From positions 625,001 through 689,000 of the forward strand of contig NZ_JACHNC010000001.1 in the NCBI RefSeq assembly GCF_014205215.1: a DNA stretch of 64,000 nt, read 5' to 3'. Positions within the stretch are counted from its first letter, which is position 1. Each line of letters begins with the position of its first letter. The position numbers and the translations under genes were made by a program. Origin of the DNA: Actinoplanes lobatus. GTDB lineage: Bacteria; Actinomycetota; Actinomycetes; Mycobacteriales; Micromonosporaceae. This document shows, piece after piece, positions 11,434-44,385 of this stretch. The notes under the pieces are model-generated. The model was not told the DNA's origin, made no database searches, and saw only the letters and a program-made list of their open reading frames with translations.

Positions 11434-11512
11434 GACCCGGCAGCGGGGTCGCGGGGCGCCGCGGAGCGGGCCCGGTGCGGTCGGGGACGGCGGAGCCCGT
11501 ACCGGAAATGGT
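11434..11512 (-). repeat. 3'-end element directly after the DUF6282 gene
   Basis: Read on the minus strand from the stop codon, it carries TTTCCGGTACGG, a hairpin-like segment, CCCC, GACCGCA, and further on GCCCGCTCCGCGGCGCC and CGCTGCCGGGTC. The same blocks in the same order follow the glutaryl-CoA dehydrogenase stop at 18747-18826, and the first half follows the vWA gene stop at 27547. Probably a mobile or conserved 3' untranslated element; possible terminator role. Confidence 0.7.
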
Positions 11513-12418
11513 TCATGTGGCGATGAAGCGTGAGTTGGCGACGGCCATGGTGTGGATCTCGGCCTCGGTGAAGCCCGCGCCGAGCAGGCGGTCGGCGAAG
11601 AGGGCGAGCCCGTCCTCGACCGGCGGGTTGAAGGGCTGGCCCAGGTCGCTGGAGAGCACCGAGTACTCCGGCCCGACGGCGCGGATGGTGGCGATCATGT
11701 CGTCCCAGGAGACCTTGCCGGTGTGCGGGGTGGTGAAGCAGCGCTCCAGGAGGGCGCCGAGTGAGGCCAGCCGGATCTGGTCGGCCGCGGGGAGGCGCTG
11801 CGAGGTGAACTCGGGGTGGGTGACGACGATGCGCCGGACGCCCTCCTCGCGGGCGGCCAGCACCACGGCGATGATCTCGGCGGCGGCGAGGTGGCCGGTG
11901 GCCAGGACCATGTCGTGCCGGGCGATCACCCGGAGCACCCGGCGGACCGGTTCGAGGACCCGGCCGTCGGGGGAGAGCACCTCGACGATGTCCGGGACGA
12001 TGCCCTGGGCGTGCAGGTCGGCCTGGAGGGCGCCCCACATGGCCGGTTTCGCGCCGGGCAGGTCGCCGGCGGTGCTGGTGCGCTGGTTGCGTGAGTCGAC
12101 CGTGGGCATCCAGACGATGCGGGCGCCGAGGCGGCCGGCGATCTCGACGGCGGCCGGGTTCATGCCGCCCATCGAGCCGTTCAGGGTGATGGCACCGAGC
12201 ACGTCGACGCCGGGGACGGCCGCGCGCACCACGGCGGCGCGCTCGGCCGTGGTGACATAGTGCGATTTGAGCACGAAACCGGCGAGGCCCACCGCCAGAC
12301 AGCGGTGGGCCAGGCCGAGATCGTCGATGCGGCGGTCCATCACGTCGGGCGCCACGTGCACGTGGGTGTCGTAGGCCCCGGCGACCAGTTCACGGGCGGC
12401 GGTGGACGGCTCGGACAC
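11513..12418 (-). CDS. DUF6282 family protein (amidohydrolase-like TIM barrel)
   Basis: 301 residues. The start YDTHVHVAPD carries the HxH motif typical of strand 1 of metal-dependent amidohydrolases; LKSHYV, IVVTHPEF and a late SSDLGQPFNP supply further possible metal ligands. The family is defined but, as far as I know, has no assigned substrate. A single gene, with a repeat element directly after its stop codon. It ends 22 bases before the stop-side of the pilin-like operon, which is on the same strand and upstream, so read-through from that operon is possible. Confidence 0.8.
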   Translation of the reverse strand: MSEPSTAARELVAGAYDTHVHVAPDVMDRRIDDLGLAHRCLAVGLAGFVLKSHYVTTAERAAVVRAAVPGVDVLGAITLNGSMGGMNPAAVEIAGRLGARIVWMPTVDSRNQRTSTAGDLPGAKPAMWGALQADLHAQGIVPDIVEVLSPDGRVLEPVRRVLRVIARHDMVLATGHLAAAEIIAVVLAAREEGVRRIVVTHPEFTSQRLPAADQIRLASLGALLERCFTTPHTGKVSWDDMIATIRAVGPEYSVLSSDLGQPFNPPVEDGLALFADRLLGAGFTEAEIHTMAVANSRFIAT

Positions 12419-12440
12419 GGCACCATGCTGTCACACCCCA

Positions 12441-13964
12441 TCACTTCTCAGTGATGTCGCCGATCGGGCTGAATCCGCTGAGGTTCGCCGGGGCGTTCCA
12501 CTTCTGCAACTCGGAGGCGCTGCATACGGCAACCTTGATGCGGCTGGTGCCGTCGCTGTGGGTGGTGTCCTTGGTCGCCTTGGCGAGATCCGTGGGTTGC
12601 AGGCAGAGCCCGGCCCGGTCCTCGATGCGGTAACTCTTCGTATAGGTCTTGTCCTGGTGACGCACCTTCCAGATCAGCCGGTCCGGCAGTGCGGAGACGC
12701 TCAGGTTGGTGGGGCATTTCTCCGCCGTCACCCAGCTCTCACTCTTCAACGGTGACTTGAGGCAATACTTCGTCCCACTGTTGGTGACGACGACCGGGCC
12801 CTCCTTCTCGGTGGCGGGTTCCACCGGGATCGGGTGCACCCAGATCTGGTTCCACTCGACGACGCCGCTCGGGTCCTGCTTGCAGAACCAGGCGATCATG
12901 TAGGCGTAGCCGGTGTCCTTGTTCGTGACGTCGAGACAGCGGCTGAACTGGGCATAGTTGACCAGCTGGTAGGTCTCCTCACCGGCCATGCCGGCGCCCA
13001 CGCCGGGGTCGAACCGCCAGACGTTCACCGTCGCGCCGGCGCTGCAGGTTCCCAGCTGCAGCGGGGTGTCGACCTTGCTGGCGGTCTTCAGGTTGAGGCA
13101 GAGGCTCTCCACCTTCCGATCCGGGCCCGCGGAGTGCATCACACTGTTGCCGTCGAGACTCCATTGGAACTGCGTCGCGATGGCGGTTCCGCTCGGGCAG
13201 GGCTGGAACACGGTCCCGGTGCCACTCTTGTGCGCGTCGGCACCCGCGTACAGGCACATGCCCTTGGTGGCGGTGGTCGTCTCCGAGTTGACCAGGCGTA
13301 TGTACAGCTCCTTGGTGTACTGGAACTGCTGTGTGCTGCCGCCGTCGCACTTGCGCATGACGATCGCCGCGCCGGGCGCCGGGGACTTCTGCACCCCGTC
13401 CATGCACAGGTCACCGATGGTGGAGGAGGAGATCCGGATGGCACCGCCGTCGACGTTCGAGTTGTCGATGGCGAACGTGTAGGTGCCGTTCAGGGTGCGC
13501 GAGCCGTACTTCGGCGACTCGCCGGCCTTGGCCAGGTTGAGGGTGCCGATACCCTGCGACTCGAGCTTCGCGGTCTTCGGCACCACCTTGGTGAGCGGGC
13601 AGGCCAGCTCCACGTCGTTCTCGTCGTAGTAGGTGATGGTCACCTTGTAGGCGAGCTTCTCACCGGCCGCGGACAAACCGGCGTCGCCTTCGACCACGCA
13701 CTTGGGGAGATCCTCCAGCAGACCCCGGATGTCGCCTTCGGCCACTTTCTCGGAGGCGGCGGCGACGCGGGCCATCACCACGTCCATACCGATGCGGGCA
13801 CCGTTGAGAGCGGTGTCGCGGTCGACGAAGCTGCGGGTGGCGACGACCTGGCGGACGATCGTCGGAAGGAAGGCCGCGGACAGGGCCAGGCCTACGAAGG
13901 TGACCATCATCACCATCGGCAGCGATCCGCGGTCGTCACCGGCGCCGCGGCGCAGCTTCATCAT
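12441..13964 (-). CDS. PilX-like pilus-assembly protein with ricin-B-type lectin repeats
   Basis: 507 residues. The N-terminus (RGSLPMVMMVTFVGLALSAA) is one hydrophobic helix after a short basic leader, as in PilX/minor-pilin-like proteins, but it lacks the Phe-Thr-Leu-Ile-Glu cleavage signature of its two operon partners. The rest is secreted, with many Cys residues and QxW-type repeats such as STQQFQY, ATQFQWSL and LQKWNAP, each preceded by C-L blocks (LCMDGVQ, MCLYAG, LCLNLK, RCLDVT, LCLQPT). These are marks of beta-trefoil ricin-B lectins, here probably two trefoils. Third gene of an operon joined by ATGA overlaps. Likely a sugar-binding tip or shaft protein; this is inference. Confidence 0.72.
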   Translation of the reverse strand: MMKLRRGAGDDRGSLPMVMMVTFVGLALSAAFLPTIVRQVVATRSFVDRDTALNGARIGMDVVMARVAAASEKVAEGDIRGLLEDLPKCVVEGDAGLSAAGEKLAYKVTITYYDENDVELACPLTKVVPKTAKLESQGIGTLNLAKAGESPKYGSRTLNGTYTFAIDNSNVDGGAIRISSSTIGDLCMDGVQKSPAPGAAIVMRKCDGGSTQQFQYTKELYIRLVNSETTTATKGMCLYAGADAHKSGTGTVFQPCPSGTAIATQFQWSLDGNSVMHSAGPDRKVESLCLNLKTASKVDTPLQLGTCSAGATVNVWRFDPGVGAGMAGEETYQLVNYAQFSRCLDVTNKDTGYAYMIAWFCKQDPSGVVEWNQIWVHPIPVEPATEKEGPVVVTNSGTKYCLKSPLKSESWVTAEKCPTNLSVSALPDRLIWKVRHQDKTYTKSYRIEDRAGLCLQPTDLAKATKDTTHSDGTSRIKVAVCSASELQKWNAPANLSGFSPIGDITEK

Positions 13965-14635
13965 TTCGGCCTTCCTTTACCGCAGTCTTCGCTGTACGTG
14001 GGCGCCGCTTCGCCGGTCATGTTCTGTGAGGTGAAGACGCTGTCGAACGGCATGGTGACCGTGCCCTCCCGGACCTGGAACCGCAGCCGGGTCATCTGGA
14101 AGGCGTTGCCGAAGCCGGTGCCGACCCCCACGGTTCCGGCGGTCTCCTTGGCGTACGGGGTGTCCCCGGGTTTGTAGACGGTGAACGGCTTGACCCCGCT
14201 CTCCAGGATCACGCCGCCGGCCAGCGCGGCCGAGGGCCCCGGAGTCTGGGTCGCCCCACTGGACCGGACCCAGTGGGCGAGGCTCAGCACGCCATTCTCG
14301 AGCTTGAGCTGCCTGCACTCGACCTTCTCAGGGGTTTTCGCCGGCGCAGGGAGGGCGTACTCCATGTACCAGGCGCCGTCGTACTCGCCAGGCTCGGACA
14401 TATTGGTGGCGTATCGCAGTTCCTTGTCCAGCCGACGGAAACTGTTGTCCAGTTGCTCGCGGGCGATGGAGGTGTGCTCAATGCGCTTGGCGCCGGAGTA
14501 GACCTGAATGACGGCGGTCGTCACCGCGGCCATCACCACCGCCATGATCGACGTGGTGATCATGATCTCGATGAGGGAGAAGCCTTCCTCATCACCCGTT
14601 CGACGATGTCGCACTCGGGCCTCCCCGCGGCTCAA
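13961..14635 (-). CDS. Prepilin-like protein, PilW/PulJ type
   Basis: 224 residues. A charged leader of 17 residues is followed by the type IV prepilin signature GFSLIEIMIT and a single hydrophobic helix (IMAVVMAAVTTAVIQVYSGA), the site for a PilD-like peptidase that cuts before Phe. A globular domain of about 180 residues follows. Start and stop overlap the neighbours by ATGA, so all three genes are coupled. No pilus ATPase, PilC or peptidase gene lies in this window; they must be elsewhere if the system works. Confidence 0.82.
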   Translation of the reverse strand: MSRGEARVRHRRTGDEEGFSLIEIMITTSIMAVVMAAVTTAVIQVYSGAKRIEHTSIAREQLDNSFRRLDKELRYATNMSEPGEYDGAWYMEYALPAPAKTPEKVECRQLKLENGVLSLAHWVRSSGATQTPGPSAALAGGVILESGVKPFTVYKPGDTPYAKETAGTVGVGTGFGNAFQMTRLRFQVREGTVTMPFDSVFTSQNMTGEAAPTYSEDCGKGRPK

Positions 14636-16413
14636 CTGACTCTCCAGACGAAGGTGTAGATCACGGTCTCCACCGGGTTGGAGCTGACCGCGGTGAGGGT
14701 GACGGTGTAGGTGCCAGCCAGCGACGGTGCACCGAAAATGGTGTCCTGGCCGTTCTGCCAGGACGTGCCCGCCGGCAATCCGACCACCGTGACCTTGACG
14801 CCATTCGCGCCGACCGTGGCGGCGTTGGTCGTCACCGGCAACGTCACCTGCGCACCGAGGACGGAGTCCACCTGTGCGGCCGGAGACGTGAAGGCCAAGC
14901 CGGACGCGGAGGTCACGAGCAGCTCGAAGGTGGTGCTCACCGTGGAGCCGCGTCCGTCCGTCACGGTGATAGTCGGCAGGTAGCGGCCGGCGATGAGCAC
15001 CGGAGACCCGGAGATCACCCCGGTGGACGAGCCGATCCTCAATTCCGCGGGCAGACCGGACGCTGCATAGGTGTACATCCCGTCACCACCCGCCGCCACC
15101 GTGTTCAGGGTGAAGGTCGATGCCACGGCGATCCGCTGCGACGGAATCGCCTGCACGGTCAATGGGTCGAGAACGGTGTGAGTGTGCGTGACTCTGCCGG
15201 CCACGTCATTGGCATCGGTGGCGATGATGGTCGTGGTGAAGGTCCGGGCCGCGGTTCCGGTGATCAGACCCGTCTTCGAGTCGATCACGAAGCCGGTGGG
15301 CAGCGACGTCTCGACCGTGTAGGTGAACGGCCCCACACCTCCGGTGACAACCGGCTGGATCCGGACGGCGTCCCCGACACGGCTCGCCGTGGCGGTGGGC
15401 ACCGTGACCGTCGGCGGATCGACGACCTCCCAGACCAGGTTGAGGTCGGCGTCGGTGTCGGAGCGCTTCGAGGCGACACCCTCCGGCGGGGTGCTCTCGG
15501 TCACCTTGATGGTCGTATTCGTGGTGGCGAACGACCACTTGCCGGTCCTGGTCGGCGTACCCGACACCTCACCGGTCTCCGCGTTGATCACGAGACCGTC
15601 GGGCAGGTTGGTGGCGCTCCACGTGTTGGGCAGGTTACCGCCGGTGGCCTTCAGGTAGACCGAGACGTCGGAGCGCCCCCGGTAGAAGGTCCGCATGAAC
15701 GGCATACGGATGAGCGGCGTCGGCCGCTTGGAGCTGAACACCGCATTGTCCTTGACCCGGGATACCAGGGTCGAAGCGACGTAGGCGCACCGGGCGGCCG
15801 GGCAGCTCTTGTGCTGCCAGGAGATGAGCACGACGACCCGGTAGTACTTCAAAATCGAGGTGGTGTCAGTCGGCCGCTTGGGGTCGCCGACCGCGAGCGG
15901 GCGGACGCAGTCGTCCCGTTCCGCCGCCTTCGCGGCGAATGGGTAGACGTCGCAGCCCGACACGAGGAGCCGCTGCTCGAAGGCCATGCCTCCGGCGGAG
16001 ATCTTCTGCGTCGCGGTCGGCAGCGGTGCATTGTCGCCCTTGCCGACGGCGTCCGGGTCGTAGGCGTATTCACCCTGCACACTGTCGAAGGGTGTGGCCA
16101 TGGCGTCCAGGTACGGTGTCACCTCGTCCTTGAACGGACCGGACTGCAGCTCCTGCCACTGCGCCTTGACCTTCGCCTCACCGCGGCCATCGAGCAGCGC
16201 CGACCCCTCCAGCGCGCGAACCTGCTCCAGCGCGCCGGCGGCGACCTGCGCGGCCTGCCGCTGGTCGCGCTGCTGGGCGACCGCAAGGGCCCCGTTCACG
16301 TAGAACGTGCCCAGTCCAGCCATGGCTGTACTCAGGACCGCCAGGGAGACGAGCACCTCGATGAGGGTGAAGCCCTCGTCATCGGTGCGTCGGCCGAACG
16401 GTACGCTGCGCAT
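14632..16413 (-). CDS. Prepilin-like protein with C-terminal Ig-like/cadherin-like modules
   Basis: 593 residues, first gene of the three-gene operon. The leader MRSVPFGRRTDDEG is followed by GFTLIEVLVSLAVLS, a textbook type IV prepilin signature with Glu at +5. After a pilin-sized domain (about residues 30-235) come three or four repeats of a beta-sandwich marked by LPDGLVINAETGEVSGTP, LPTGFVIDSKTGLITGT and LPAELRIGSSTGVISGSP. These are the putative-Ig (He_PIG) signature. A minor pilin of unusual size, suited to display an adhesive stalk; the binding target is unknown. Confidence 0.82.
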   Translation of the reverse strand: MRSVPFGRRTDDEGFTLIEVLVSLAVLSTAMAGLGTFYVNGALAVAQQRDQRQAAQVAAGALEQVRALEGSALLDGRGEAKVKAQWQELQSGPFKDEVTPYLDAMATPFDSVQGEYAYDPDAVGKGDNAPLPTATQKISAGGMAFEQRLLVSGCDVYPFAAKAAERDDCVRPLAVGDPKRPTDTTSILKYYRVVVLISWQHKSCPAARCAYVASTLVSRVKDNAVFSSKRPTPLIRMPFMRTFYRGRSDVSVYLKATGGNLPNTWSATNLPDGLVINAETGEVSGTPTRTGKWSFATTNTTIKVTESTPPEGVASKRSDTDADLNLVWEVVDPPTVTVPTATASRVGDAVRIQPVVTGGVGPFTYTVETSLPTGFVIDSKTGLITGTAARTFTTTIIATDANDVAGRVTHTHTVLDPLTVQAIPSQRIAVASTFTLNTVAAGGDGMYTYAASGLPAELRIGSSTGVISGSPVLIAGRYLPTITVTDGRGSTVSTTFELLVTSASGLAFTSPAAQVDSVLGAQVTLPVTTNAATVGANGVKVTVVGLPAGTSWQNGQDTIFGAPSLAGTYTVTLTAVSSNPVETVIYTFVWRVS

Positions 16414-16516
16414 CTCACTCCCGACTGCTGCCTGGGCAGGGTTCTACCGAGGCATTCATCGGCAGGGCGCCGCGAGAGTGAAGGATTCGCCGCCCCCGGG
16501 GGCAGGCGCCGCGGGG

Positions 16517-17515
16517 TCAGCCGGTGCGTTCCGCGATGTAGTGGCAGAACTGCTCCAGCGTCTGCCGGGCGGCCCCGGCGGGCAGCGTGCCGACACTGCG
16601 GCGGGCCGCCTCGGCGTAGCCGTGCACGGTCTCCCGGGCCTGCTTCAGAGCGGCCGACTCGCGCAGCAGGGCCAGCGCCTCGGCGTGCTCACCATCGTCG
16701 GTGAGCGGGCCCTTGCTGAGCAGTTCCCGCAGACGGGGGCTGCCGGCGGAGGGGTCGGACAGGGCGTAGAGCACCGGCAGGGTGGGCACGCCCTCGCGCA
16801 GGTCGGTGCCGGGCGTCTTGCCGGACTGGGCCGACTCGGACGCGATGTCGAGCAGGTCGTCGGAGAGCTGGAAGGCGATCCCGATGGCGGTGCCGAACGC
16901 GGCGAGCGTCTCCACGTGCTCCGGGGACAGCCCGGAGTACAGGCCGCCGAACCGGGCCGAGGTGGCGATCAGCGAGGCCGTCTTGTCCTCGACGGCGCGC
17001 AGGTGGTGCCGGATCGGGTCGCCGCCGCGCGGGCCGACGGTCTCGGCGAGCTGGCCGCGGACCAGCTGCGACAGGGTGGCGGCCTGGAGGCGGACCGCCT
17101 CGTCGCCCAGGCCTGCGGCCATCGACGCGGCCCGGGCCAGCAGGAAGTCGCCGACGTACACGGCCAGCCGGTTGCTCCACCGCGAGTTCGCGCTGGCCGC
17201 GCCGCGCCGCAGGGACGCCTCGTCCATCACGTCGTCGTGGTAGAGGGTGGCCAGGTGGGTCAGCTCCATGAGCACCGCTGCCGGCAGCAGTTCGGGGCGG
17301 CCCGGGTCGCCGAACTGGGCGCACAGCGCCACCACCATCGGGCGGAACCGCTTGCCGCCGGCCCGCACCAGATGCGCCGCGACCTCGGCGACCAGCGGGT
17401 CGGGGCTGGCCACGGCGGTGTACAGCCCGGTCTCCACATCCGCCAGGAAGCCCGAGACGGCGTCCCGGACGGACGGATCGACGAGGTCACTGAGTCCCGG
17501 TATCGCGGCCGCCAT
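16517..17515 (-). CDS. Long-chain trans-polyprenyl diphosphate synthase
   Basis: 332 residues. Condenses isopentenyl diphosphate units onto an allylic primer. The first Asp-rich motif is LYHDDVMDEA and the second QLSDDLLDIA; the substrate Lys/Arg region GGKRFRPM is present. In actinobacteria such enzymes make the menaquinone side chain; chain length cannot be read from the sequence with certainty. ATG 17515 is chosen; a TTG two codons earlier is also open. It is divergent from the acyl-CoA dehydrogenase with 64 bases between starts. Confidence 0.92.
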   Translation of the reverse strand: MAAAIPGLSDLVDPSVRDAVSGFLADVETGLYTAVASPDPLVAEVAAHLVRAGGKRFRPMVVALCAQFGDPGRPELLPAAVLMELTHLATLYHDDVMDEASLRRGAASANSRWSNRLAVYVGDFLLARAASMAAGLGDEAVRLQAATLSQLVRGQLAETVGPRGGDPIRHHLRAVEDKTASLIATSARFGGLYSGLSPEHVETLAAFGTAIGIAFQLSDDLLDIASESAQSGKTPGTDLREGVPTLPVLYALSDPSAGSPRLRELLSKGPLTDDGEHAEALALLRESAALKQARETVHGYAEAARRSVGTLPAGAARQTLEQFCHYIAERTG

Positions 17516-17579
17516 GATCAAGAGGCTAGATCACCCGGCTGAGAGCACGCTGATCAGGCCCTCGGTGCAGAATCGACCC

Positions 17580-18746
17580 ATGACCGTCACCGATCCACTC
17601 GACCTGCTCGACATCGACAGCCTGCTCAGCGACGAGGAGCGACAGATCCGGGAGACGGTGGCCCGGTTCGTGGCCGACCACGTCCGCCCGCACGTGGCGG
17701 ACTGGTTCGAGGCCGGCACCTTCCCCCGCGAGCTCGCCCCCGAGCTGGGCAAACTGGGCGTGCTCGGGATGCACCTGGAGGGGTACGGCTGCGCCGGCGC
17801 CAGCGCTGTGGCGTACGGCCTGGCCTGCCTGGAACTGGAGGCCGGCGACTCCGGGCTGCGCAGCTTCGTCTCGGTGCAGGGCTCGCTCGCGATGTTCTCG
17901 ATCTGGAAGTACGGCTCCGAGGAGCAGCGCCAGGAGTGGCTGCCCCGGATGGCGGCCGGCGAGGCGATCGGCTGCTTCGGACTGACCGAGCCGGACTTCG
18001 GCAGCGACCCGGCCAACATGCGCACCCGCGCGGTCCGCGACGGCGGCGACTGGATCCTGAACGGCTCCAAGATGTGGATCACCAACGGCAGCATCGCCGA
18101 CGTGGCCACCGTCTGGGCGCAGACCGAGGACGGCATCCGCGGCTTCCTCGTACCGAAGGACACCCCCGGCTTCACCACGCGGACCATCAAGCGGAAGCTG
18201 TCACTGCGCGCCTCGATCACCGGTGAGCTGGCCCTCGACGACGTCCGGTTGCCCGCTTCGGCCATGCTGCCCGGGGCGAAGGGTCTGGGCGCCCCGCTGA
18301 GCTGCCTGAGCGAGGCCCGGTTCGGCATCGTCTTCGGCTCGGTCGGCGCGGCCCTCGACTCGCTGCGCACCACGATCGACTACGCGAACAACCGCGTCCA
18401 GTTCGGCAAGCCGATCGCCGCCTTCCAGCTCACCCAGGGCAAGCTGGCCGACATGGCGGTCGACCTCGGCACGTCCGCCCTGCTCGCGCTGCACCTGGGC
18501 CGGCTCAAGGACGCCGGCCGGCTCAAGCCGCACCAGATCAGCGTCGGCAAGCTCAACAACGTGCGCCGGGCGCTGGCCACCGCCCGCGAGTGCCGCGGCA
18601 TCCTGGGCGGCAGCGGCATCACCCTGGAGTACTCCCCGCTGCGCCACGCCAACAACCTCGAATCGGTGGTCACCTACGAGGGCACCTCGGAGATCCACAC
18701 GCTGGTCATCGGCCAGACGCTCACCGGCCACGCCGCCTACCGATAA
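17580..18746 (+). CDS. Glutaryl-CoA dehydrogenase-like acyl-CoA dehydrogenase
   Basis: 388 residues. FAD-binding and substrate blocks (CFGLTEPDFGSDP, KMWITNGSIADVATVWA) and the C-terminal VTYEGTSEIHTLVIGQ, which holds the catalytic Glu, match the glutaryl-CoA dehydrogenase branch better than straight-chain enzymes. That enzyme converts glutaryl-CoA to crotonyl-CoA in lysine and aromatic degradation. Start ATG 17580. A single gene; a repeat element begins immediately after its stop codon. Confidence 0.85.
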   Translation: MTVTDPLDLLDIDSLLSDEERQIRETVARFVADHVRPHVADWFEAGTFPRELAPELGKLGVLGMHLEGYGCAGASAVAYGLACLELEAGDSGLRSFVSVQGSLAMFSIWKYGSEEQRQEWLPRMAAGEAIGCFGLTEPDFGSDPANMRTRAVRDGGDWILNGSKMWITNGSIADVATVWAQTEDGIRGFLVPKDTPGFTTRTIKRKLSLRASITGELALDDVRLPASAMLPGAKGLGAPLSCLSEARFGIVFGSVGAALDSLRTTIDYANNRVQFGKPIAAFQLTQGKLADMAVDLGTSALLALHLGRLKDAGRLKPHQISVGKLNNVRRALATARECRGILGGSGITLEYSPLRHANNLESVVTYEGTSEIHTLVIGQTLTGHAAYR

Positions 18747-18826
18747 ACCCGTTTCCGGTACGGCGTGCGCCGGCCCCAACCGCAGTCCGCCCGCTCCGCG
18801 GCGCCGGGCGATCTCGCTGCCGGGTC
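18747..18826 (+). repeat. 3'-end element directly after the glutaryl-CoA dehydrogenase gene
   Basis: It begins right after the stop codon with TTTCCGGTACGG, then CGGCG-TG-CGCCG (a 5-bp hairpin), CCCC, AACCGCA, a 17-base block GCCCGCTCCGCGGCGCC, and CGCTGCCGGGTC. Against the copy at 11434-11512 it aligns over the full length with one gap and roughly four of five bases identical by eye. The outer CGGT and ACCG can also pair around the hairpin. Confidence 0.7.
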
Positions 18827-18873
18827 CCGCCCGCGAGGCGCCGCCGGGCGGAGATCGGTGGTCCGGCCACCAG

Positions 18874-19098
18874 CTACTGGTAGCCGCGGATCTGGCAGAA
18901 CGCCTGGGTCAGGTCGCCGCCGCGGGCGTCCCAGAGCTCGCCGCCGCTGAGCTCGGCGACCTCCCGCATCTGCGCCTCGGCGGCCTCACCGAACAGGACC
19001 GGGAAGACCGGGATCGGCTCGGCGTCCCGGGGCCGCTGCCGCACGTGCCGGCGATAGTCGGCGAGGACCCGGCCGCGGTTGCTCTCGCCGTCGGTCAT
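18874..19098 (-). pseudogene. C-terminal fragment of a vWA-domain protein
   Basis: The frame MTDGESNRGRVLADYRR, VFPVLFGEAAEAQMREVAEL, ending QIRGYQ and a stop, matches the end of the substrate-binding/vWA proteins of actinobacteria. The MIDAS strand (normally DxSxS) and all upstream parts are gone. Its 5' end is fused directly to a kinase gene start, with reading frames that do not match, so it cannot be translated as one protein. Confidence 0.75.
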
Positions 19099-19256
19099 CA
19101 GCGCTCGCGCAGCTCCGGATCCAGCAGCGCGGCCGGGGTCAGCAGCTTGAGCGCGACGGTCCGGCCGGTGTGGCTGTCGACGGCCTCCCACACCTCGCCC
19201 ATTCCGCCCTTCCCCAAGAGCGTGATCTTCTGATAGCGGCCGGTCTCCTCGGGCAC
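19098..19256 (-). pseudogene. Ser/Thr protein kinase gene reduced to its first 52 codons
   Basis: From GTG 19256, with GGAG six bases before, the frame reads RYQKITLLGKGGMGEVWEA (the glycine-rich ATP loop) and TVALKLLTP (the ATP-anchoring Lys). It then stops at RER-TGA, where the sequence switches to the vWA fragment. The stop codon shares bases with the ATG of that fragment. This is a deletion scar that removed most of the kinase and most of the next gene. Confidence 0.78.
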
Positions 19257-21488: not shown

Positions 21489-21494
21489 TCCGAT

Positions 21495-21520
21495 GAAAGG
21501 GGGGCCTCGGCCCCCCTTTC
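21495..21520. terminator. Bidirectional intrinsic terminator
   Basis: A perfect 12-bp stem, GAAAGGGGGGCC and its complement GGCCCCCCTTTC, with only TC between. It lies between the convergent secreted-protein operon and the transporter gene, and has an A-run before it and a T-run after it, so it can serve both strands. Confidence 0.88.
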
Positions 21521-21523
21521 CCG

Positions 21524-22912
21524 TTACAGCTTGTCGAGCTGGGTGACGACCATCGCGACGGCGAAGAAGCCGTAGAAGCCGATCGCCACGATCATGCCGC
21601 CGAGCCGCCAGCCACGCATCCGCACCGGCGCCGGCAGGTCCCGGGTGTTCAGCTTCACCAGCAGGATCGAGTAGAGCAGCGTCACCACCGAGGCCGCGCA
21701 GGTGGAGACGATCAGCAGGCCGAGCGGCTGGGTGAAGCCGGCCAGCAGGATGGCCGAGCCGAGCACGATCTCCGCCCACACCACGGTCAGGTAGATCCGC
21801 GGCTCGGTCCAGCGCGCGGAGCCGGCGAGGTAGTTGCGGCGCAGGAAGTCCGACGCCACCCGGCCGATGATGTCGAGCAGGCCCATCGCGGCGGCCCACA
21901 GCGACACCGCGGCCACCGCCAGGAACAGCAGCTTGAGCCACGGGCCGACCTCGTCCGCGAAGATCTCGCCCTGGATCCGCAGGAACGACGGGTCCGACTT
22001 GAGGTCGCCCCGGCCGAACAGCGTCTCGTACGCGAGCAGGCTCATCACGCCGATGGTCACGAAGCAGACCGCCACGAACGTGACCAGATGCTCGACGTTG
22101 GCCCGCTTCCACCACACCTTCCAGCGGCCCATCGACGTCTCGTCGAGCGGGAACGTGTACCGGTCGCCGCCGCCGGCCGCCTCCTCCTGCCCGGTGATCG
22201 GGGAGATCAGCCGGGGTACGTGGGCGCCCATGCCGTACCGCTTGTCCCGGATCCAGTTGCTCAGCACCAGGTTGTGCACGCCACCGGCGCCGGCCGCGCC
22301 GATCGCACTGAGCAGCATGGTGAAGGTGATGCCGTCCGGGATCTGCCCGAACTCGGTGACCGTGGCCTTCGCGCCGTCACCCCAGGTGCTCAGTGAGATC
22401 ACGAAGACGACCACGACGGCCAGGAAGAACAGCGTCAGGGCGACCTTGACGGCCTCGACCCGCTCGACGGTCCGGTAGACCACCTTGGACAGCGACAGCA
22501 GCACGCCGATGATCACCAGGGTGGCCACCGTGATCCAGACCGGGTCGCCACCCCCGATCAGGTACGTGAAGACGGTCGAGCCGCTGGTCGCCCAGCCGGG
22601 CCAGACGTACTGGAAGGCGCCGGCCAGGCAGATGATGACGCCCCAGCCCTTCCACCAGCGGGAGAAGCCGGCGACCACGGTCTGCCCGGTGGCCAGGGTG
22701 TAGCGCTCGATCTCCATGTTGATGACGAACTGCACGGCCAGCGTGGTGAACGCCAGCCAGAGCAGGCCCAGGCCGCCGATCGCGGTCAGGTACGGCCAGA
22801 GGATGATCTCGCCGGCCGCCAAGCCGATGCCGACGGCGACGACGCCGGGGCCGATCATCCGGCGTAGCGAGAGGGGTTCGGGGAGTTCACGAGTGGTGGT
22901 CTCGGTCAGCAT
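21524..22912 (-). CDS. Atypical Nramp-related membrane transporter
   Basis: 462 residues, about 11 membrane helices. The fold and order match the Nramp family: TM1 begins GPGVVAVGIGLAAGE and TM6 contains AAGAGGVHNLVLSNW. Canonical Nramp metal-binding residues are not conserved: TM1 lacks the Asp-Pro-Gly-Asn motif and TM6 has Gly-Val-His where Met-Pro-His is expected. The substrate may therefore not be a plain divalent metal. It overlaps the preceding AroE-type gene by seven bases (ATGCTGA), tying it to the shikimate cluster. Either it supplies metal for the dehydratase or it carries an organic acid; neither is shown. Confidence 0.78.
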   Translation of the reverse strand: MLTETTTRELPEPLSLRRMIGPGVVAVGIGLAAGEIILWPYLTAIGGLGLLWLAFTTLAVQFVINMEIERYTLATGQTVVAGFSRWWKGWGVIICLAGAFQYVWPGWATSGSTVFTYLIGGGDPVWITVATLVIIGVLLSLSKVVYRTVERVEAVKVALTLFFLAVVVVFVISLSTWGDGAKATVTEFGQIPDGITFTMLLSAIGAAGAGGVHNLVLSNWIRDKRYGMGAHVPRLISPITGQEEAAGGGDRYTFPLDETSMGRWKVWWKRANVEHLVTFVAVCFVTIGVMSLLAYETLFGRGDLKSDPSFLRIQGEIFADEVGPWLKLLFLAVAAVSLWAAAMGLLDIIGRVASDFLRRNYLAGSARWTEPRIYLTVVWAEIVLGSAILLAGFTQPLGLLIVSTCAASVVTLLYSILLVKLNTRDLPAPVRMRGWRLGGMIVAIGFYGFFAVAMVVTQLDKL

Positions 22913-23730
22913 TGCCGCTCCAGGATCTGGGAGAGGTGAAGCAACATCCGCGCGATATCGGGGGTACGCCCGGTGAACAGCTCGAACGCCGCGGCGGCCT
23001 GGTAGGCGCACATCGCCGTGCCGCCGATCGTCCGCAGACCGCGGGCACGGGCGGCACGCAGCAGCTCCGTCTCCAACGGCATGTAGACGATGTCGGCGAC
23101 CCACAGGCCACGGTGGAGCGACTCTGCGGGAAGCGGCGTTCCCGGGTGGTGGTGCATGCCGATCGGGCTGGCGTTGACCAGCCCGTCGGCGTCGGCGAGC
23201 AGCTCCGGCGTGGCCGTCGTCGCATGGCGCGCGCCGATCCGGTCGGCAAGCTCCGCGCCGCGGGCCCTGTCCGGGTCCACGATCGTCAGCCGCTCGGCGC
23301 CCAGTTCACGCAACGCATGGGCACAGGCCGCCCCGGCGCCGCCCGCGCCCAGTTGCACGACATGGCGGACGGCCACATCGGGCAGTTGGGAACGGAAGGA
23401 CTCGGCGAAGCCGTACGCGTCGGTGTTGTGCCCCTGCCGTCGGCCGTCCCGGAAGACCACGGTGTTGACCGCATTGATGTCGCGGGCCAGCGGGGACAGG
23501 TCGTCGAGGTGTTCGATCACCTGCTGCTTGAACGGGTGGGTGATGTTGAGCCCGGCGAAACCGGCGCGGTCGGCCTCGTCGAGGAGCCGTTCGAGATCCG
23601 CGGTCTTCCCGGTGTCGAACAGCGTGTAGGTGAGCCCGAGGTGGTGGTGGCGCCCCTCGGCCTCGTGCAGCGCCGGTGACAGCGACGTGCCGATTCCGGC
23701 TCCGATCAACCCACACCGGAACGCCGCCAT
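22906..23730 (-). CDS. Shikimate/quinate dehydrogenase (AroE family, catabolic type)
   Basis: 274 residues. Substrate loop GTSLSPALHEAEG, catalytic Lys in NITHPFKQQV and Asp in GHNTDAYGF are all present. The nucleotide motif is GAGGAGAACAHAL followed by IVDPDRAR; an acidic residue there favours NAD over NADP, as in catabolic enzymes such as the C. glutamicum quinate/shikimate dehydrogenase, while biosynthetic AroE has NRT. The Ser-x-Ser loop suggests shikimate rather than quinate. ATG 23730 has GGAG six bases before. First gene of a two-gene operon divergent from the TetR gene. Confidence 0.88.
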   Translation of the reverse strand: MAAFRCGLIGAGIGTSLSPALHEAEGRHHHLGLTYTLFDTGKTADLERLLDEADRAGFAGLNITHPFKQQVIEHLDDLSPLARDINAVNTVVFRDGRRQGHNTDAYGFAESFRSQLPDVAVRHVVQLGAGGAGAACAHALRELGAERLTIVDPDRARGAELADRIGARHATTATPELLADADGLVNASPIGMHHHPGTPLPAESLHRGLWVADIVYMPLETELLRAARARGLRTIGGTAMCAYQAAAAFELFTGRTPDIARMLLHLSQILERQC

Positions 23731-23744
23731 ATCGATCTCCACTT

Positions 23745-23768
23745 CTAATGTACGAACTGGTACGTTAG
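23745..23768. promoter_or_regulatory. TetR-type operator between divergent genes
   Basis: A 24-bp imperfect palindrome with arms CTAATGTAC and GTACGTTAG. It lies in the 90 bases between the dehydrogenase start (23730) and the TetR gene start, the standard place for an autoregulatory TetR operator. Probably controls both directions; the inducer would be expected to be shikimate, dehydroshikimate or protocatechuate (inference). Confidence 0.7.
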
Positions 23769-23820
23769 TTATCGGGTGTGACGGCGGCCACTGTCAAGAC
23801 TCACGGCAGACTTACTTTCC

Positions 23821-24462
23821 ATGACACAGGAGAAGGCCGTGGTGGAGAGACAGCGCGACGCGGAACGCACCCGCACCGAACTCCTCGACGTGGCCACCGA
23901 GGAGTTCGCCGAGAACGGCTACAGCGGCGCCCGGGTCGACGAGATCGCCGCCCGCACCCGCACCACGAAACGGATGATCTACTACTACTTCGGCGGCAAG
24001 GAGCAGCTCTACCTGGCGGTTCTCGAGCGGGCGTACGCCGAGATCAGAGCCGCCGAACGCACCGTCGACGTCGACCACCTGGACCCGGTCGCCGCGGTCC
24101 GCCGCCTCGCCGAGGTCACCTTCGACCACCACGAGGCACACCCGGCCTTCATCAAACTGGTCGGCGTCGAGAACGCGCAGCACGCCAAACACATGAACCA
24201 CGTGGCCCGGCTGGTCGACCTGAACAGCTCGGCCGTCGACCTGCTCCGCGGCGTCCTCGACCGGGGCCGCGCGGAAGGCGCCTTCCGCGACGACGTCGAC
24301 GCCCTCGACGTACACATGATGATCAGTTCGTTCTGCTTCTTCCGCGTCGCCAACCGCCACACCTGGGGCGCGCTCTTCGACCGGGACCTGCTCGACGAGT
24401 CCCGCCGCGGGCACTACCGCACCATGCTCGGCGACCTGGTGACCGGCTATTTGAGAAAGTGA
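23821..24462 (+). CDS. TetR-family regulator of the shikimate cluster
   Basis: 213 residues. The helix-turn-helix is complete (ATEEFAENGYSGARVDEIAA and TTKRMIYYYFGGKEQLYLAV), followed by an all-helical ligand domain. ATG 23821 has no clear ribosome site; GTG 23839, six bases after GGAG, may be the real start, giving VVERQRDAERTR. The gene ends six bases before the dehydratase gene, so the two form one transcript facing the dehydrogenase-transporter operon. Confidence 0.9.
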   Translation: MTQEKAVVERQRDAERTRTELLDVATEEFAENGYSGARVDEIAARTRTTKRMIYYYFGGKEQLYLAVLERAYAEIRAAERTVDVDHLDPVAAVRRLAEVTFDHHEAHPAFIKLVGVENAQHAKHMNHVARLVDLNSSAVDLLRGVLDRGRAEGAFRDDVDALDVHMMISSFCFFRVANRHTWGALFDRDLLDESRRGHYRTMLGDLVTGYLRK

Positions 24463-24468
24463 GATCCG

Positions 24469-26517
24469 ATGCGCCGGTCGATCGCTACGGTTTGTGTTTC
24501 CGGCACCCTTGACGACAAGCTGACGGCGGCGGCCGCGGCCGGTTTCGACGGCATCGAGCTGTTCGAGAACGACCTCGTGGTCTCCCCGTGGTCACCGGCC
24601 GGGATCCGGCGGCGCTGCGCCGACCTGGGCCTCACCATCGACCTGTACCAGCCGTTCCGCGACTTCGAAGCGGTGCCGGACGAACTGCTCAAGGCCAACC
24701 TCTCGCGGGCCGAACGCAAATTCGAGGTGATGGCCGAACTCGGGACCGACACCGTCCTGGTGTGCTCGTCGGTGTCCCCCGCCGCCGTCGACGACGACGA
24801 TCTGGCGACCGCACACCTGTCACTGCTGGCCGACCGGGCGGCGGCACACGGGATGCGGATCGCGTACGAGGCCCTGGCCTGGGGCCGTCACGTGTCCACG
24901 TGGGACCACTCGTGGCGGATAGTCCAGCAGGCTGATCATCCCGCTCTCGGGCTCTGCCTCGACTCGTTCCACGTACTGTCCCGCGAGATCCCCCCGGACG
25001 GCATCGCCGGCATCACCCCCGGCAAGATCTTCTTCCTGCAGTTGGCCGACGCCCCGCACCTGCGGATGGACGTGCTCCAGTGGAGCCGCCACCACCGCCT
25101 CTTCCCCGGCCAGGGCGCCTTCGACCTGCCCCGCTTCCTCGGCCTGGTGCTGTCCGCCGGCTACTCCGGCCCGCTGTCGCTCGAGGTCTTCAACGATGTC
25201 TTCCGCCAGTCGGATCCCGCCCGAACCGCGGTCGACGCGATGCGCTCCCTCACCCTCCTCGAAGACCGCCTCGCCACCCTCCCCGCCGCACCCCGCACCT
25301 CCCCCACCCCCGCCTCCACCGCGCCTCACGCCTCCACCGCCGCGCCCCACGCCTCCGCCACCCCGCCCCACGCCTCCGCCACCGCCGCCGCGCCCCACGC
25401 CTCCGCCTCCGCCACCGCGCCCCACGCTTCCACCGCCGCGCCCCACGCCTCCGCCACCGCGCCCCACGCCTCCGCCTCCGCGCCCCACGCCGCCCCCGCC
25501 GTTCAGCTCGCGGACCGGCCCGGCGTTCGGCGTCTTCCTCCCGCTCCGCGGCTGACCGGGCACGCCTTCACCGAATTCGCCGTCGACGGGCACTCGGGGC
25601 CCGAACTGCGGTCCGCCCTACGGGGTCTCGGCTTCGCGCACACCGGCCAGCACCGCACCAAACCGGTCGAACTCTGGGAACAGGGCGCCTGCCGGATCGT
25701 CCTGAACAGCGCGGTCACCCACCCCGGCCCCGCCGCGATCAGCGCCTTCGCCGTCACATCGGAGAATCCGCCGCTCTCCCTGGCCCGGGCCGAGGCGCTG
25801 TCCGCCCCCGCCCACCTCAACGTGCGCGAGCCCGGCGAGGCCGAACTCGCCGCGATCACCGCCCCGGACGGCACCAGCGTCCTCGTCACCCACCCCGGCG
25901 ACAACTGGCGCTCCGACTTCCTGCCCACCGGCACACCGGCCGGCCCCGGCGCCGGGCTGCTCACCGTCGACCATCTCGGCCTGACCCAGCCATTCGACCA
26001 CTTCGACGAGGCCGGGCTCTTCTACCACTCGGTGCTCGGCCTCGAACACCTTCCCACCGAGGAGTACGCAGCACCGTACGGCCTGATGCGCTCCCGCGCC
26101 GTATCCGATCCGCAGAGGACGGTCCGCGTCGCCCTGACCGTGGCCCTGCTCCGCCGCGGCGAATGGGCGCCCGCCGTCTCCGACCCTCAACACGTAGCAT
26201 TCGCGACCGCCGACCTGATCGCCACCGCCCGCGCCCTGAGCCTGCCGCCGCTGCCGGTCCCGGCCAACTACTACGCCGACCTGGCCGCCCGCTTCGGCCT
26301 CACCGACGACTTCGTGGCCACCCTCCGCGAGCACGGCATCCTGTTCGACCGCGACCCCTCCGGCGGCGAACTGCTCCACCTCTACACCCCGGTCTTCGGC
26401 GGCCGCGTCTTCTTCGAAATCACCGAACGCCGCGCCGGCTACGACCGCTTCGGCGAACCCAACGCCCCCGTACGCATGGCCGCCCAACGCCACCGCCGCC
26501 TGACCACCACCCCTTAG
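24469..26517 (+). CDS. 3-dehydroshikimate dehydratase fused to an HPPD-like dioxygenase domain
   Basis: 682 residues. N-terminal TIM barrel (about 1-270) of the QuiC1/QsuB type, converting 3-dehydroshikimate to protocatechuate. The four metal ligands fall at Glu134 (YEALAWG), Asp165 (CLDSFHV), Gln191 (LQLADAP) and Glu239 (SLEVFND), the positions I recall for characterised QuiC1. The C-terminal half is a 4-hydroxyphenylpyruvate-dioxygenase-like VOC pair with His near 500 (TVDHLGL), His near 574 (QHVAFAT) and Glu near 649 (FFEITER), the Fe-binding triad. The linker (about 274-344) is an Ala-Pro-His-Ala-Ser repeat. Known fusions do not show HPPD activity; the role of the domain here is open. Confidence 0.9.
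   Translation: MRRSIATVCVSGTLDDKLTAAAAAGFDGIELFENDLVVSPWSPAGIRRRCADLGLTIDLYQPFRDFEAVPDELLKANLSRAERKFEVMAELGTDTVLVCSSVSPAAVDDDDLATAHLSLLADRAAAHGMRIAYEALAWGRHVSTWDHSWRIVQQADHPALGLCLDSFHVLSREIPPDGIAGITPGKIFFLQLADAPHLRMDVLQWSRHHRLFPGQGAFDLPRFLGLVLSAGYSGPLSLEVFNDVFRQSDPARTAVDAMRSLTLLEDRLATLPAAPRTSPTPASTAPHASTAAPHASATPPHASATAAAPHASASATAPHASTAAPHASATAPHASASAPHAAPAVQLADRPGVRRLPPAPRLTGHAFTEFAVDGHSGPELRSALRGLGFAHTGQHRTKPVELWEQGACRIVLNSAVTHPGPAAISAFAVTSENPPLSLARAEALSAPAHLNVREPGEAELAAITAPDGTSVLVTHPGDNWRSDFLPTGTPAGPGAGLLTVDHLGLTQPFDHFDEAGLFYHSVLGLEHLPTEEYAAPYGLMRSRAVSDPQRTVRVALTVALLRRGEWAPAVSDPQHVAFATADLIATARALSLPPLPVPANYYADLAARFGLTDDFVATLREHGILFDRDPSGGELLHLYTPVFGGRVFFEITERRAGYDRFGEPNAPVRMAAQRHRRLTTTP
25290..25500 (+). 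repeat. Coding tandem repeat in the dehydratase linker
   Basis: About ten imperfect units built on GCGCCCCACGCCTCCGCC encode Ala-Pro-His-Ala-Ser-Ala/Thr. The units vary in length by whole codons, so the frame is kept. It separates the dehydratase and dioxygenase-like halves and probably varies in length between strains. Confidence 0.85.
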
Positions 26518-26800
26518 CCCTCCCACCCACCACCCGAACCGCCCACCCCAAACCGCCCACCCCGCACCGCACCACCGCGCACCGCCTTCCCACCCACCGC
26601 ACCACCACGCACCGTGCACCGCGCGCCACCGCGCCACCGCGCCACCGCGCACCGCGCGCCACCGCGCCGCCGCGCACCGTGCACCGCGCGCCACCGCACC
26701 ACCGCGCACCGCCTTCCCACCCACCGCACCACCACGCACCGTGCACCGCGCGCCACCGCGCCACCGCGCCACCGCGCAAGGCCTGGCGCCTCGGCAGCCA
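26518..26800. repeat. Low-complexity CACCGC-rich tract with a 127-bp duplication
   Basis: The region after the dehydratase stop is made of CACCGCGCGCCACCGCGCC-type units. A block beginning ACCGCCTTCCCACCCACC at 26581 recurs at 26708, an offset of 127 bases. Open frames cross it on both strands but are composition artefacts. Confidence 0.75.
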
Positions 26801-26802
26801 GC

Positions 26803-26850
26803 GATCTTGGACGTTCTCCCACCGGATTCGGCGGCAAAACGTCCAAGATC
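26803..26850. repeat. 48-bp palindrome, cluster copy 1
   Basis: Arms GATCTTGGACGTT and AAACGTCCAAGATC with ACC/GGC pairing inside. First of five copies; followed by CCGCTACCCGGGCGCGACCC, which also follows copy 3. Confidence 0.85.
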
Positions 26851-26939
26851 CCGCTACCCGGGCGCGACCCCATCGCCCGCATCCGCCACCCACCCCGGAA
26901 GCCGTCCCACCGCAGCCGGACCGCCCACCCGCAGCCGAC

Positions 26940-26987
26940 GATCTTGGACGATTTCCTACCGGATTCGGTGGCAAGACGTCCAAGATT
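26940..26987. repeat. 48-bp palindrome, cluster copy 2
   Basis: Arms GATCTTGGACG and CGTCCAAGATT, interior CTACCGGATTCGGTGG. The last base of the right arm has changed from C to T. Confidence 0.85.
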
Positions 26988-27126
26988 CCGCCACCCTTGC
27001 GCCCCACCATCCGCAGCCGCCGCCACCCACCCACTCAGGGCGCCACCCAACCGCGGCCGGAACCACCGGGCCGGAGCCACCGCAGCCGCGACTCCCGCCC
27101 ACTGCCAGGCGCCGCCCACAGCCGGC

Positions 27127-27174
27127 GACCTTGGACGTCTTGCCACCAAATCCGGTGGCAAGACGTCCAAGATC
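27127..27174. repeat. 48-bp palindrome, cluster copy 3
   Basis: Arms GACCTTGGACGTCTTGCCACC and GGTGGCAAGACGTCCAAGATC pair over almost the full arm; the interior is AAATCC. Confidence 0.85.
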
Positions 27175-27262
27175 CCGCTACCCGGGCGCGACCCCATCGC
27201 CCGCATCCGCCGCCCCCGCCGGGCGCCGCCCGCCGCAGCCGGACCGCCCACCCGCAGCCGAC

Positions 27263-27310
27263 GATCTTGGACGTTTTCCTACCAAATCCGGTGGGAAAAC
27301 GTCCAAGATC
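27263..27310. repeat. 48-bp palindrome, cluster copy 4
   Basis: Arms GATCTTGGACGTTTTCC and GGAAAACGTCCAAGATC are perfectly complementary over 17 bases. Copies 3 and 4 with their spacer repeat the copy 1-copy 2 unit (about 136 bases), showing a segmental duplication. Confidence 0.88.
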
Positions 27311-27345
27311 CGGCCGACCTGGTTGCCCGGGCACCAACATCCGGC

Positions 27346-27393
27346 GACCTTGGACGGTCGACCACCAAATCCGGTGGGAAAACGTCCAAGATC
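27346..27393. repeat. 48-bp palindrome, cluster copy 5
   Basis: Arms GACCTTGGACG and CGTCCAAGATC with interior ACCACCAAATCCGGTGGG. Followed by G-rich tandem units like those after the isolated copy at 11105. Confidence 0.85.
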
Positions 27394-27404
27394 TGCGTGG
27401 GGGG

Positions 27405-27489
27405 TCGGCGGCGGGCAAGGCGCGACGGGCGCGACGGGGCGGCGGCGGGCAAGGCGCGACGGGTCGGCGGCGGGCAAGGCGCGACGGGC
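27405..27489. repeat. Three G-rich direct repeats
   Basis: Three units containing GGCGGCGGGCAAGGCGCGAC, the middle one separated by an extra GCGCGACGGG. They sit between palindrome copy 5 and the 3'-end element of the vWA gene. Confidence 0.75.
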
Positions 27490-27508
27490 GGGACGGGCGG
27501 GAGGGGGT

Positions 27509-27547
27509 GGATGCGGTTGGGGGGCTTCAGCCCGTACCGGAAAGGGG
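27509..27547 (-). repeat. 3'-end element directly after the vWA gene
   Basis: On the minus strand, straight after the TAA, it reads CCCC-TTTCCGGTACGG, then GGGCT-GA-AGCCC as a 5-bp hairpin, CCCC, AACCGCA. This is the first half of the 80-bp element at 18747-18826, with a different hairpin sequence that still pairs. Confidence 0.7.
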
Positions 27548-44375: not shown

Positions 44376-44385
44376 TGGTGATGCG

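What the first reader, a model, noticed from the sequence alone, without database searches (positions are those of the whole stretch)
11434..27547. A structured element directly follows the stop codons of three unrelated genes
After the DUF6282 gene (11512), the glutaryl-CoA dehydrogenase gene (18747) and the vWA gene (27547), the next bases always give TTTCCGGTACGG, a hairpin, CCCC, and (A/G)ACCGCA. The hairpin sequence differs between copies (CGGCG-TG-CGCCG versus GGGCT-GA-AGCCC) but still pairs, and the outer CGGT/ACCG can pair too; the first copy has a weaker ACGG/CCGT stem. Two copies extend to about 80 bases with a shared 17-base block. This looks like a 3' untranslated structure kept in design. 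A shorter TTTTCCGGTACGCG occurs 30 bases after the stop at 10282. It could be an unusual terminator, an RNA-stability element or a mobile sequence that targets gene ends.
Basis: seen in the sequence. Interest (0 to 1): 0.72.

Follow-up and report, generated by a model that had tools for sequence, protein, structure and literature searches.

The report
Polar repeat behind converging genes
A DNA repeat of about 120 bases, estimated at several hundred copies in this bacterium's genome, sits just behind the stop codons of genes that run towards each other and mostly points the same way relative to its gene; it may end transcription or be a selfish repeat that settles at gene ends.

Summary
The three sites are real and belong to a large dispersed repeat family. 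The genome holds 160 exact TTTCCGGTACG (reversed word: 0). A profile finds 18 copies in 464 contiguous kb (reversed sequence: 0), roughly 400 per genome. Among 200 genomes of the family, strong amplification is confined to the window's genus. The repeat is about 120 nt. Its conserved head lies a few to about 60 nt behind a stop codon, in sense. Copies occupy 13 of 71 convergent gene gaps against 1 of 304 others. Of 34 neighbouring copy pairs, 33 face each other, 1 is same-strand, 0 back-to-back.

A linear skeleton is conserved, C-rich on the sense strand. Copies are gained, lost and type-switched between close species; variable positions diverge about three times faster than four-fold sites.

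Best reading: a REP-like repeat family, not palindromic and without a recognised RAYT, plausibly a strand-specific (Rho-type) 3'-end terminator; a selfish repeat parked in safe sites is equally likely.

The parts
10283..10434 (+). H-type copy with 5' extension starting right after the TAG stop of the gene ending at 10282; head TTTCCGGTACG at 10312-10322
   Evidence: (HMM 86.0 bits, 10309-10434)
11392..11516 (-). G-type copy behind the DUF6282 gene; head at 11498-11508 (minus strand)
   Evidence: (65.6 bits)
10579..11393 (.). Non-coding repeat core between the two facing copies; pieces recur elsewhere in the genome
   Evidence: 83% over 820 bp, inverted, at interval 142253-143746; 17 other fetched own regions with at least 250 bp of summed, partly overlapping matches; no Pfam match, no codon signal
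18744..18869 (+). G-type copy filling the gap between two convergent genes; head at 18752-18762
   Evidence: (56.4 bits), orthologs
27496..27550 (-). Truncated G-type copy (5' half only) behind the vWA gene; head at 27533-27543 (minus strand)
   Evidence: (14.9 bits, E 0.01); the related genome G205 has a similarly truncated form
32404..32414 (+). Bare head word in a divergent intergenic region, no body; not counted as a copy

Best explanation
It is a dispersed, polar, genus-restricted repeat family of about 120 nt (about AACCCnTTTCCGGTACGS ... CCGTCCCG ... CGCGA ... CTGCC ... TCC ... GTGCCGCGCCCGCCGGGC..AGATCGGTGG) that occupies the 3' ends of convergently transcribed genes. SHOWN: copy number, position, polarity, facing rule, gain/loss between close species, conserved linear skeleton, no covarying hairpin of the kind proposed. 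INFERRED: each copy serves the gene whose stop codon it follows as a strand-specific 3'-end signal. The C-rich, G-poor transcript right behind the stop codon would be a Rho-utilisation site that ends transcription before the opposing gene. New copies arise by copying or recombination from other copies, so the family spreads and is homogenised like other intergenic repeats.
For: Position: in 63 of 74 exact copies with a co-oriented gene ending within 90 nt, the head lies 3-60 nt behind its stop. Of 114 copies with both neighbours called, 93 have a co-oriented gene upstream (67 convergent, 26 tandem), against 18 and 3 with an opposed one. Convergent regions 13/71 against 1/304 others (p 1.8e-9); in species G205 7/59 against 1/272. 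Facing rule 33:1:0, as expected if each copy belongs to its own gene. Composition: C-G skew +0.162 in 113 copies, against 0.053 at convergent and 0.018 at tandem ends without the exact head; +0.134 at 18 sites of three other species (12 of 30 sites dropped: 10 in called genes, 2 in a tandem repeat). Folding is little stronger than in shuffles (z -0.60, against -1.40 at other convergent ends). In 9 orthologous copies conserved columns differ at 23/366 (6.3%), against 96/898 (10.7%) in element-free convergent gaps (p 0.005), and GGTACG at 0/54 (see evidence against). The head with its position recurs in three other species, mostly with other bodies.
Against: No transcript data were available. 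58 of 71 (own) and 52 of 59 (G205) convergent gene pairs do without a copy, and tandem gaps, where terminators are needed too, held one in 1 of 233 and 1 of 213. Other, unrelated repeats pile up in the same convergent gaps, so convergent placement alone needs no function. Read by eye, own 458725 lies behind a classical hairpin plus T-run and G205 308610 behind a strong hairpin. The composition test counts related copies, so its p-value overstates independence. Skeleton conservation is not significant against four-fold sites (6.3% against 8.6%, p 0.13). The 9 orthologous pairs were picked because both members were recognisable (two of them by an exact-head search), which favours a conserved head; at 78751 own has a changed head, CTCGTACG.
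Confidence: 0.4

Rival explanations
1. A selfish or neutral mobile repeat (REP/MITE-like, moved by an unknown enzyme) that survives only where it does no harm. Convergent 3' gaps are the safest place; the insertion step prefers gene ends in one orientation, or the polarity reflects the insertion chemistry.
For: Gain/loss between species: of 12 own copies in 464 kb that could be compared, 10 sites carry a head or copy in G205 and 2 do not on that strand. Of 8 further assessable gene ends 4 are shared and 4 are not (one has only an opposing copy). Uneven amplification within the genus (4 to 251 head words per genome). Other repeats share the same sink. Some facing copies enclose 0.5-2 kb of non-coding repeat DNA.
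Against: A parked neutral repeat inserted at random should not give 33 facing: 1 same-strand: 0 back-to-back. No transposase of the REP kind was recognised: of 6 PF01797 matches two are complete and stand beside a TnpB-like ORF (IS605 type, judged by eye), four are partial and were not examined further. No target-site duplication was noticed by eye (not formally tested).
Confidence: 0.4
2. A DNA-level element for chromosome mechanics: a binding site (gyrase or a nucleoid protein) that handles positive supercoils trapped between converging genes, as proposed for BIMEs (recalled).
For: Strong preference for convergent gaps; conservation of linear sequence blocks rather than of RNA pairing.
Against: Does not explain why each copy starts behind its own gene's stop codon and why pairs face each other; no binding data.
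Confidence: 0.12
3. One reading: a conserved structured RNA element (hairpin plus outer stem) in the 3' untranslated region.
For: Individual copies can fold locally (for example CGGCG-TG-CGCCG). In some of the smallest convergent gaps two heads meet as a palindrome (own interval 213816, G205 207545, G172 175307 and 342727). One isolated complementary column pair.
Against: as above; no Rfam match at gathering score in the window apart from tRNAs, and two sub-threshold matches elsewhere in six loci.
Confidence: 0.06

Closest known systems
REP / BIME repeats with RAYT transposases
   Same: Dispersed intergenic copies in high number, downstream of genes and often between convergent genes, units often close together in opposite orientation; termini may supply a TAG stop codon (passages of PMC3733652); in E. 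coli 446 of 4,072 predicted REPs lie within 15 nt of a stop codon (passages of PMC12306157).
   Different: About 120 nt, not a 20-40 bp palindrome; rare in tandem gaps; strict polarity behind the stop codon and facing pairs; no RAYT recognised in the genome.
MIRU repeats of mycobacteria (recalled)
   Same: Actinobacterial repeats tied to stop codons and with fixed orientation relative to genes.
   Different: MIRUs (from memory) sit between tandem genes of operons; these sit between convergent genes. No sequence comparison was made.
Intrinsic and Rho-dependent terminators
   Same: Directly behind stop codons, strand-specific, C-rich transcript (Rho type, recalled).
   Different: No conserved hairpin plus U-tract of its own; a 120-nt homologous repeat rather than a composition-only site; termination untested.
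DNA uptake sequences used as terminators in Neisseria (recalled)
   Same: A short conserved word behind stop codons, sometimes as a head-to-head palindrome.
   Different: Here the word is usually one end of a longer repeat; competence was not examined.

Membership tests
REP/BIME | 20-40 bp palindromic unit | tested here: not met
   Copy ends are about -7 to +118 around the head for G copies; no covarying helix
REP/BIME | RAYT (Y1 transposase of the REP kind) in the genome | tested here: inconclusive
   6 PF01797 matches in own genome. The two complete ones stand beside a TnpB-like ORF (by eye); four partial ones were not examined. No copy lies within the six fetched loci
REP/BIME | Intergenic, downstream of genes, not divergent | tested here: met
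   0 of 71 divergent, 1 of 233 tandem, 13 of 71 convergent regions
MITE / DNA transposon | Terminal inverted repeats and target-site duplication | tested here: inconclusive
   Single copies have unlike ends. Facing pairs act as inverted repeats but are 0.758 identical on average, maximum 0.885. No duplication seen by eye in own/G205 comparisons; no formal test
Intrinsic terminator | Stable hairpin followed by a U-tract | tested here: not met
   Whole-copy z -0.60 against -1.40 for other convergent ends. The pattern scan of 10200-28000 finds 3 sites, 5.6 expected; one, in the H 5' extension at 10291, lies at a copy
Rho-dependent terminator (rut) | C-rich, G-poor transcript behind the stop codon | tested here: met
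   C-G skew +0.162 against 0.053 and 0.018. Composition only; 38% and 26% of control ends also reach a C/G ratio of 1.3 (copies 78%)
Rho-dependent terminator (rut) | Loss of termination when Rho is inhibited | not testable with these tools
   Needs Term-seq with bicyclomycin
Structured RNA family | Compensatory base changes | tested here: not met
Known Rfam family | Score above gathering threshold | tested here: not met
   Only three tRNAs in the window; two matches below gathering score, away from the heads, in six loci

The most novel reading that the evidence does not exclude
A transmissible terminator: a repeat that copies itself to gene ends, places its head at a stop codon and its body downstream in sense, and so installs strand-specific transcription stops between converging genes; in this lineage some facing pairs bound kilobase-long non-coding islands. 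This would be a class of intergenic repeat in which site, orientation and function are coupled.
Probability: 0.25. Interest if true: 0.75.

Novelty: new variant of a known kind. Interest (0 to 1): 0.55.

Why it matters
If real as read, it gives a natural set of roughly 400 comparable gene ends per genome (extrapolated) to ask how converging genes avoid read-through in a GC-rich bacterium. The polarity rule (33 facing, 1 same-strand, 0 back-to-back) is sharp and can be tested directly by Term-seq. It also shows that 3' sequences that look like differing but pairing hairpins can be a repeat without covariation.

Tried and rejected
Hairpin claim: tested several ways and rejected. RAYT mobilisation: no RAYT-like gene recognised, four partial matches not followed. 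Coding capacity of the island between the facing window copies: four ORFs without Pfam match at E 0.1 and no codon signal. Facing pairs as terminal repeats of one transposon: within-pair identity 0.758 against 0.718 when re-paired (0 of 2000 reach it), so linked in type but far from identical; in the window the pair is one H and one G copy. Non-allelic conversion as the cause of fast divergence: own-specific 12-mers recur in other own copies only slightly more often than G205-specific ones (284/679 against 241/687, not independent, own higher in 5 of 7 copies), so suggestive only. Literature: PMC searches for Actinoplanes or Micromonosporaceae with repeat words gave 0 papers, and the listings show none that by title or abstract start describes this element; most subscription journals are not held. 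The first gene-caller run put 42 of 160 exact heads inside genes; by eye many read as coding words, and a few (for example 4932461, 251594) look like true copies in miscalled genes. Six of the 18 '--' copies lie at 53-57 nt and may reflect spurious antisense ORFs in the H extension; I did not resolve this. In one search the 'core' columns were off by one base; one search recounts them (0/54 instead of 2/54) and confirms that the column registers agree.
Full report
OBSERVATION. The three copies and the shorter fourth one are present as described. The head TTTCCGGTACG starts 4-5 nt after the stops of the DUF6282, acyl-CoA dehydrogenase and vWA genes (Pfam) and 29 nt after the stop at 10282. The full pattern occurs 3 times in the window against a mean of 0.00 in shuffles.

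SCALE. The window's genome (10.4 Mb, 2 contigs) has 160 exact TTTCCGGTACG and none of the reversed word. I retrieved all 160. By my own codon-usage gene caller, which is not a curated annotation, 118 are intergenic and 42 lie inside called genes. Many intergenic ones belong to a repeat with two main subfamilies: G (TTTCCGGTACGG..., as in the three reported copies) and H (mostly TTTCCGGTACGC..., some with a 5' extension; the fourth copy); 77 of the 118 have a BLAST partner at E 1e-10. A profile HMM built from 66 copies outside a test interval finds 18 copies in 464 contiguous kb (17 at E<1e-3, the truncated vWA copy at 0.01) and none at E<1 in the reversed sequence; in 400 kb of the close relative G205 it finds 11, reversed 0. 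Extrapolated, that is about 400 copies per own genome. Pairwise BLAST extents put G copies at about -7 to +118 around the head; H copies can reach -44 and beyond +160.

SPREAD. Of 200 genomes of the family, only genomes of the window's genus show strong amplification of TTTCCGGTACGS: 142 in own, 251, 192, 117, 75 and 70 in the next highest, down to 4; genomes of other genera have 0-13, which overlaps the low end of the genus. From family make-up and genome size I infer Micromonosporaceae, genus probably Actinoplanes; this is unverified.

PLACE AND POLARITY. In the contiguous own interval 13 of 71 convergent gene pairs hold a copy, against 1 of 233 tandem and 0 of 71 divergent (Fisher p 1.8e-9); in G205 7 of 59 against 1 of 272 (p 3e-5). 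Among 122 HMM hits in the fetched own regions, 2 overlap called genes and 6 lack a called neighbour; of the remaining 114, the gene upstream of the head is co-oriented in 93 (67 convergent, 26 tandem) and opposed in 21 (18, 3) (binomial p 5e-12). Stop-to-head distances in 74 exact copies (genes ending up to 90 nt upstream only) peak at 3-6 nt, with a second hump at 20-70 nt. Taking 134 unique own copies, 34 neighbouring pairs lie within 3 kb: 33 face each other, 1 is same-strand, 0 back-to-back. Most of these regions were fetched because they hold one exact head, so the second copy is an unbiased witness of orientation. Thus the head is anchored near the stop codon of one gene and the body reads away from it. 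The single occupied tandem gap (interval 142253-143746) also holds a facing pair.

STOP CODON OVERLAP. Several H copies with the extension begin at a TAG (TAG-AGATC...), and at 767296 own has TAG where G205 has TGA. Close G copies follow TAA in 7 of 19 cases, against 29 of 368 genes in the interval. The element may therefore supply the stop, as reported for GTAG REPs (passage).

STRUCTURE. Folding the proposed arms within a copy gives no lower energy than combining arms of different copies (G n=43, H n=53; p between 0.17 and 1.0 over six arm definitions). Counting the structures of copies 2 and 3 on 14 copies gives no excess of pairing or covariation over shuffles (for the second structure 88 of 500 shuffles reach the covariation score). 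The outer pair never varies there because those copies were picked by a pattern that contains it. In all 118 intergenic copies ACCG is in the right place in 21. Mutual information across 120 copies below 90% identity shows one isolated complementary pair (columns 87-111) and no run of adjacent pairs. Dinucleotide-shuffle z for whole copies is -0.60 (n=75), against -1.40 for other convergent ends (n=85) and -1.32 for tandem ends (120 of 124 used). Rfam has no match at gathering score (six loci at E up to 1). What is conserved is linear: TTTCCGGTACG, CCCG, CCGTCCCG, CGCGA, CTGCC, TCC, GTGCCGCGCCCGCCGGGC, AGATCGGTGG.

COMPOSITION. The first 80 nt are C-rich on the sense strand: C-G skew +0.162 in 113 copies, against +0.053 (85 convergent ends) and +0.018 (124 tandem ends); +0.134 at 18 of 30 sites of three other species, 12 being dropped as coding or tandem-repeat. 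The copies are related, so this is one property of a family rather than 113 independent events.

EVOLUTION. Orthologs of the two genes were sought in 60 genus genomes (49 of 60 for vWA; 60 of 60 for the dehydrogenase); 30 loci of each were read by eye. Several species keep a diverged copy directly behind the same stop, while others have nearly empty convergent gaps (23 nt in G161, 1 nt in G210 at the dehydrogenase gene). Between own and G205 (four-fold divergence 8.6% over 109 genes) a head or copy is shared at 10 of 12 comparable sites in the interval; 5 more had no ortholog in the fetched stretch and 1 was mis-assigned. Of 15 further gene ends, 8 could be assessed: 4 shared, 4 not (one of these has only an opposing copy in G205); 3 were unclear and 4 had no match, two of them because I left them out of the query (767296 is also in the interval). 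At 78751 own has an H copy where G205 has a different type. Across 9 orthologous copies, conserved columns differ at 23/366 (6.3%), GGTACG at 0/54, variable columns at 159/630 (25.2%) (recounting). Element-free gaps differ by 10.7% (convergent, 96/898), 5.5% (tandem) and 5.9% (divergent). The skeleton is thus conserved against convergent gaps (p 0.005) but not significantly against four-fold sites (p 0.13), and the pairs were chosen for being recognisable in both species. Fast change at variable columns with a kept skeleton is what exchange among copies would give; the direct k-mer test is only weakly positive.

OTHER SPECIES. In 400 kb of G172, 15 exact heads (reversed 0): 7 convergent and in sense, 2 tandem sense, 1 tandem antisense, 5 in called genes. 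Of 72 matches to CCCNTTTCCGGTACGS in three species, 30 came with loci: 12 convergent-sense, 4 tandem sense, 4 with an opposed left gene, 10 in called genes; only 4 of the 30, all from G126, match the own HMM, so the head is shared more widely than the body. In some of the shortest gaps two heads meet as a palindrome (G172 175307, 342727; own 213816; G205 207545).

ISLANDS. Some facing pairs enclose 0.5-2 kb of non-coding DNA made of other repeats. The window's 10435-11391 is 96% covered by sequence found elsewhere in 464 kb. Its core 10579-11393 recurs in inverted orientation between the facing copies at 142292 and 143633 of the interval (83%), and pieces recur in 17 other fetched own regions (at least 250 bp of summed matches). 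No Pfam family in four ORFs and no codon signal.

INTERPRETATION. The identity as a dispersed polar repeat is solid. Function is not shown. The facing rule favours a cis role for the upstream gene; C-richness, lack of conserved structure and position behind the stop favour Rho-type termination; near-absence from tandem gaps and the general repeat load of convergent gaps favour a parked selfish repeat. I give both about 0.4. The recount did not change these odds.

LITERATURE SEEN. Passages of PMC12306157 and PMC3733652, and the start of the latter's abstract; search listings only for the rest. MIRU, Neisseria uptake-sequence terminators, BIME-gyrase, TnpB and rut features are recalled.

Noticed in passing
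window 11105-11152, 26803-26850, 26940, 27164, 27263-27310, 27383: A second repeat family with palindromic units GATCTTG(G/A)ACG...CGT(C/T)CAAGATC; in 464 own kb 15 exact words (9 of them in the window), 12 of 15 in convergent gaps, reversed-word control 0.
   Followed up: partly
window 10514-10662: Tandem repeat inside the non-coding island: two copies 71 bases apart, 96% alike over 78 bases.
   Followed up: no
own genome, GTGTCGAGGCA sites in the 464-kb interval: Another intergenic word, 7 of 7 in convergent gaps in own (reversed-word control 2), absent from the fetched G205 and G172 stretches: convergent gaps look like a general repeat sink here.
   Followed up: partly
interval positions 213816 (own) and 207545 (G205): 48- and 44-nt convergent gaps filled by a palindrome of two heads with the T-run on the 5' and the A-run on the 3' side, the reverse of a classical bidirectional terminator.
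   Followed up: partly
window 26518-27495: Nearly 1 kb of intergenic DNA before the truncated vWA copy that starts and ends in C-rich low-complexity units (CACCGCGC..., CCCGTCGCG...); no BLAST match elsewhere in 464 kb at E 1e-6.
   Followed up: no
window 44304-44567 (minus): Three tRNA genes in a row.
   Followed up: no
own genome 7151369, 7989186: Two closely alike IS605-type tnpA genes (by eye) beside oppositely oriented TnpB-like ORFs, plus four partial PF01797 matches.
   Followed up: partly
own genome 2.0-2.5 Mb and 6.5-7.0 Mb: Two half-megabase bins with no intergenic exact head, while the other 19 bins hold 2-12.
   Followed up: no
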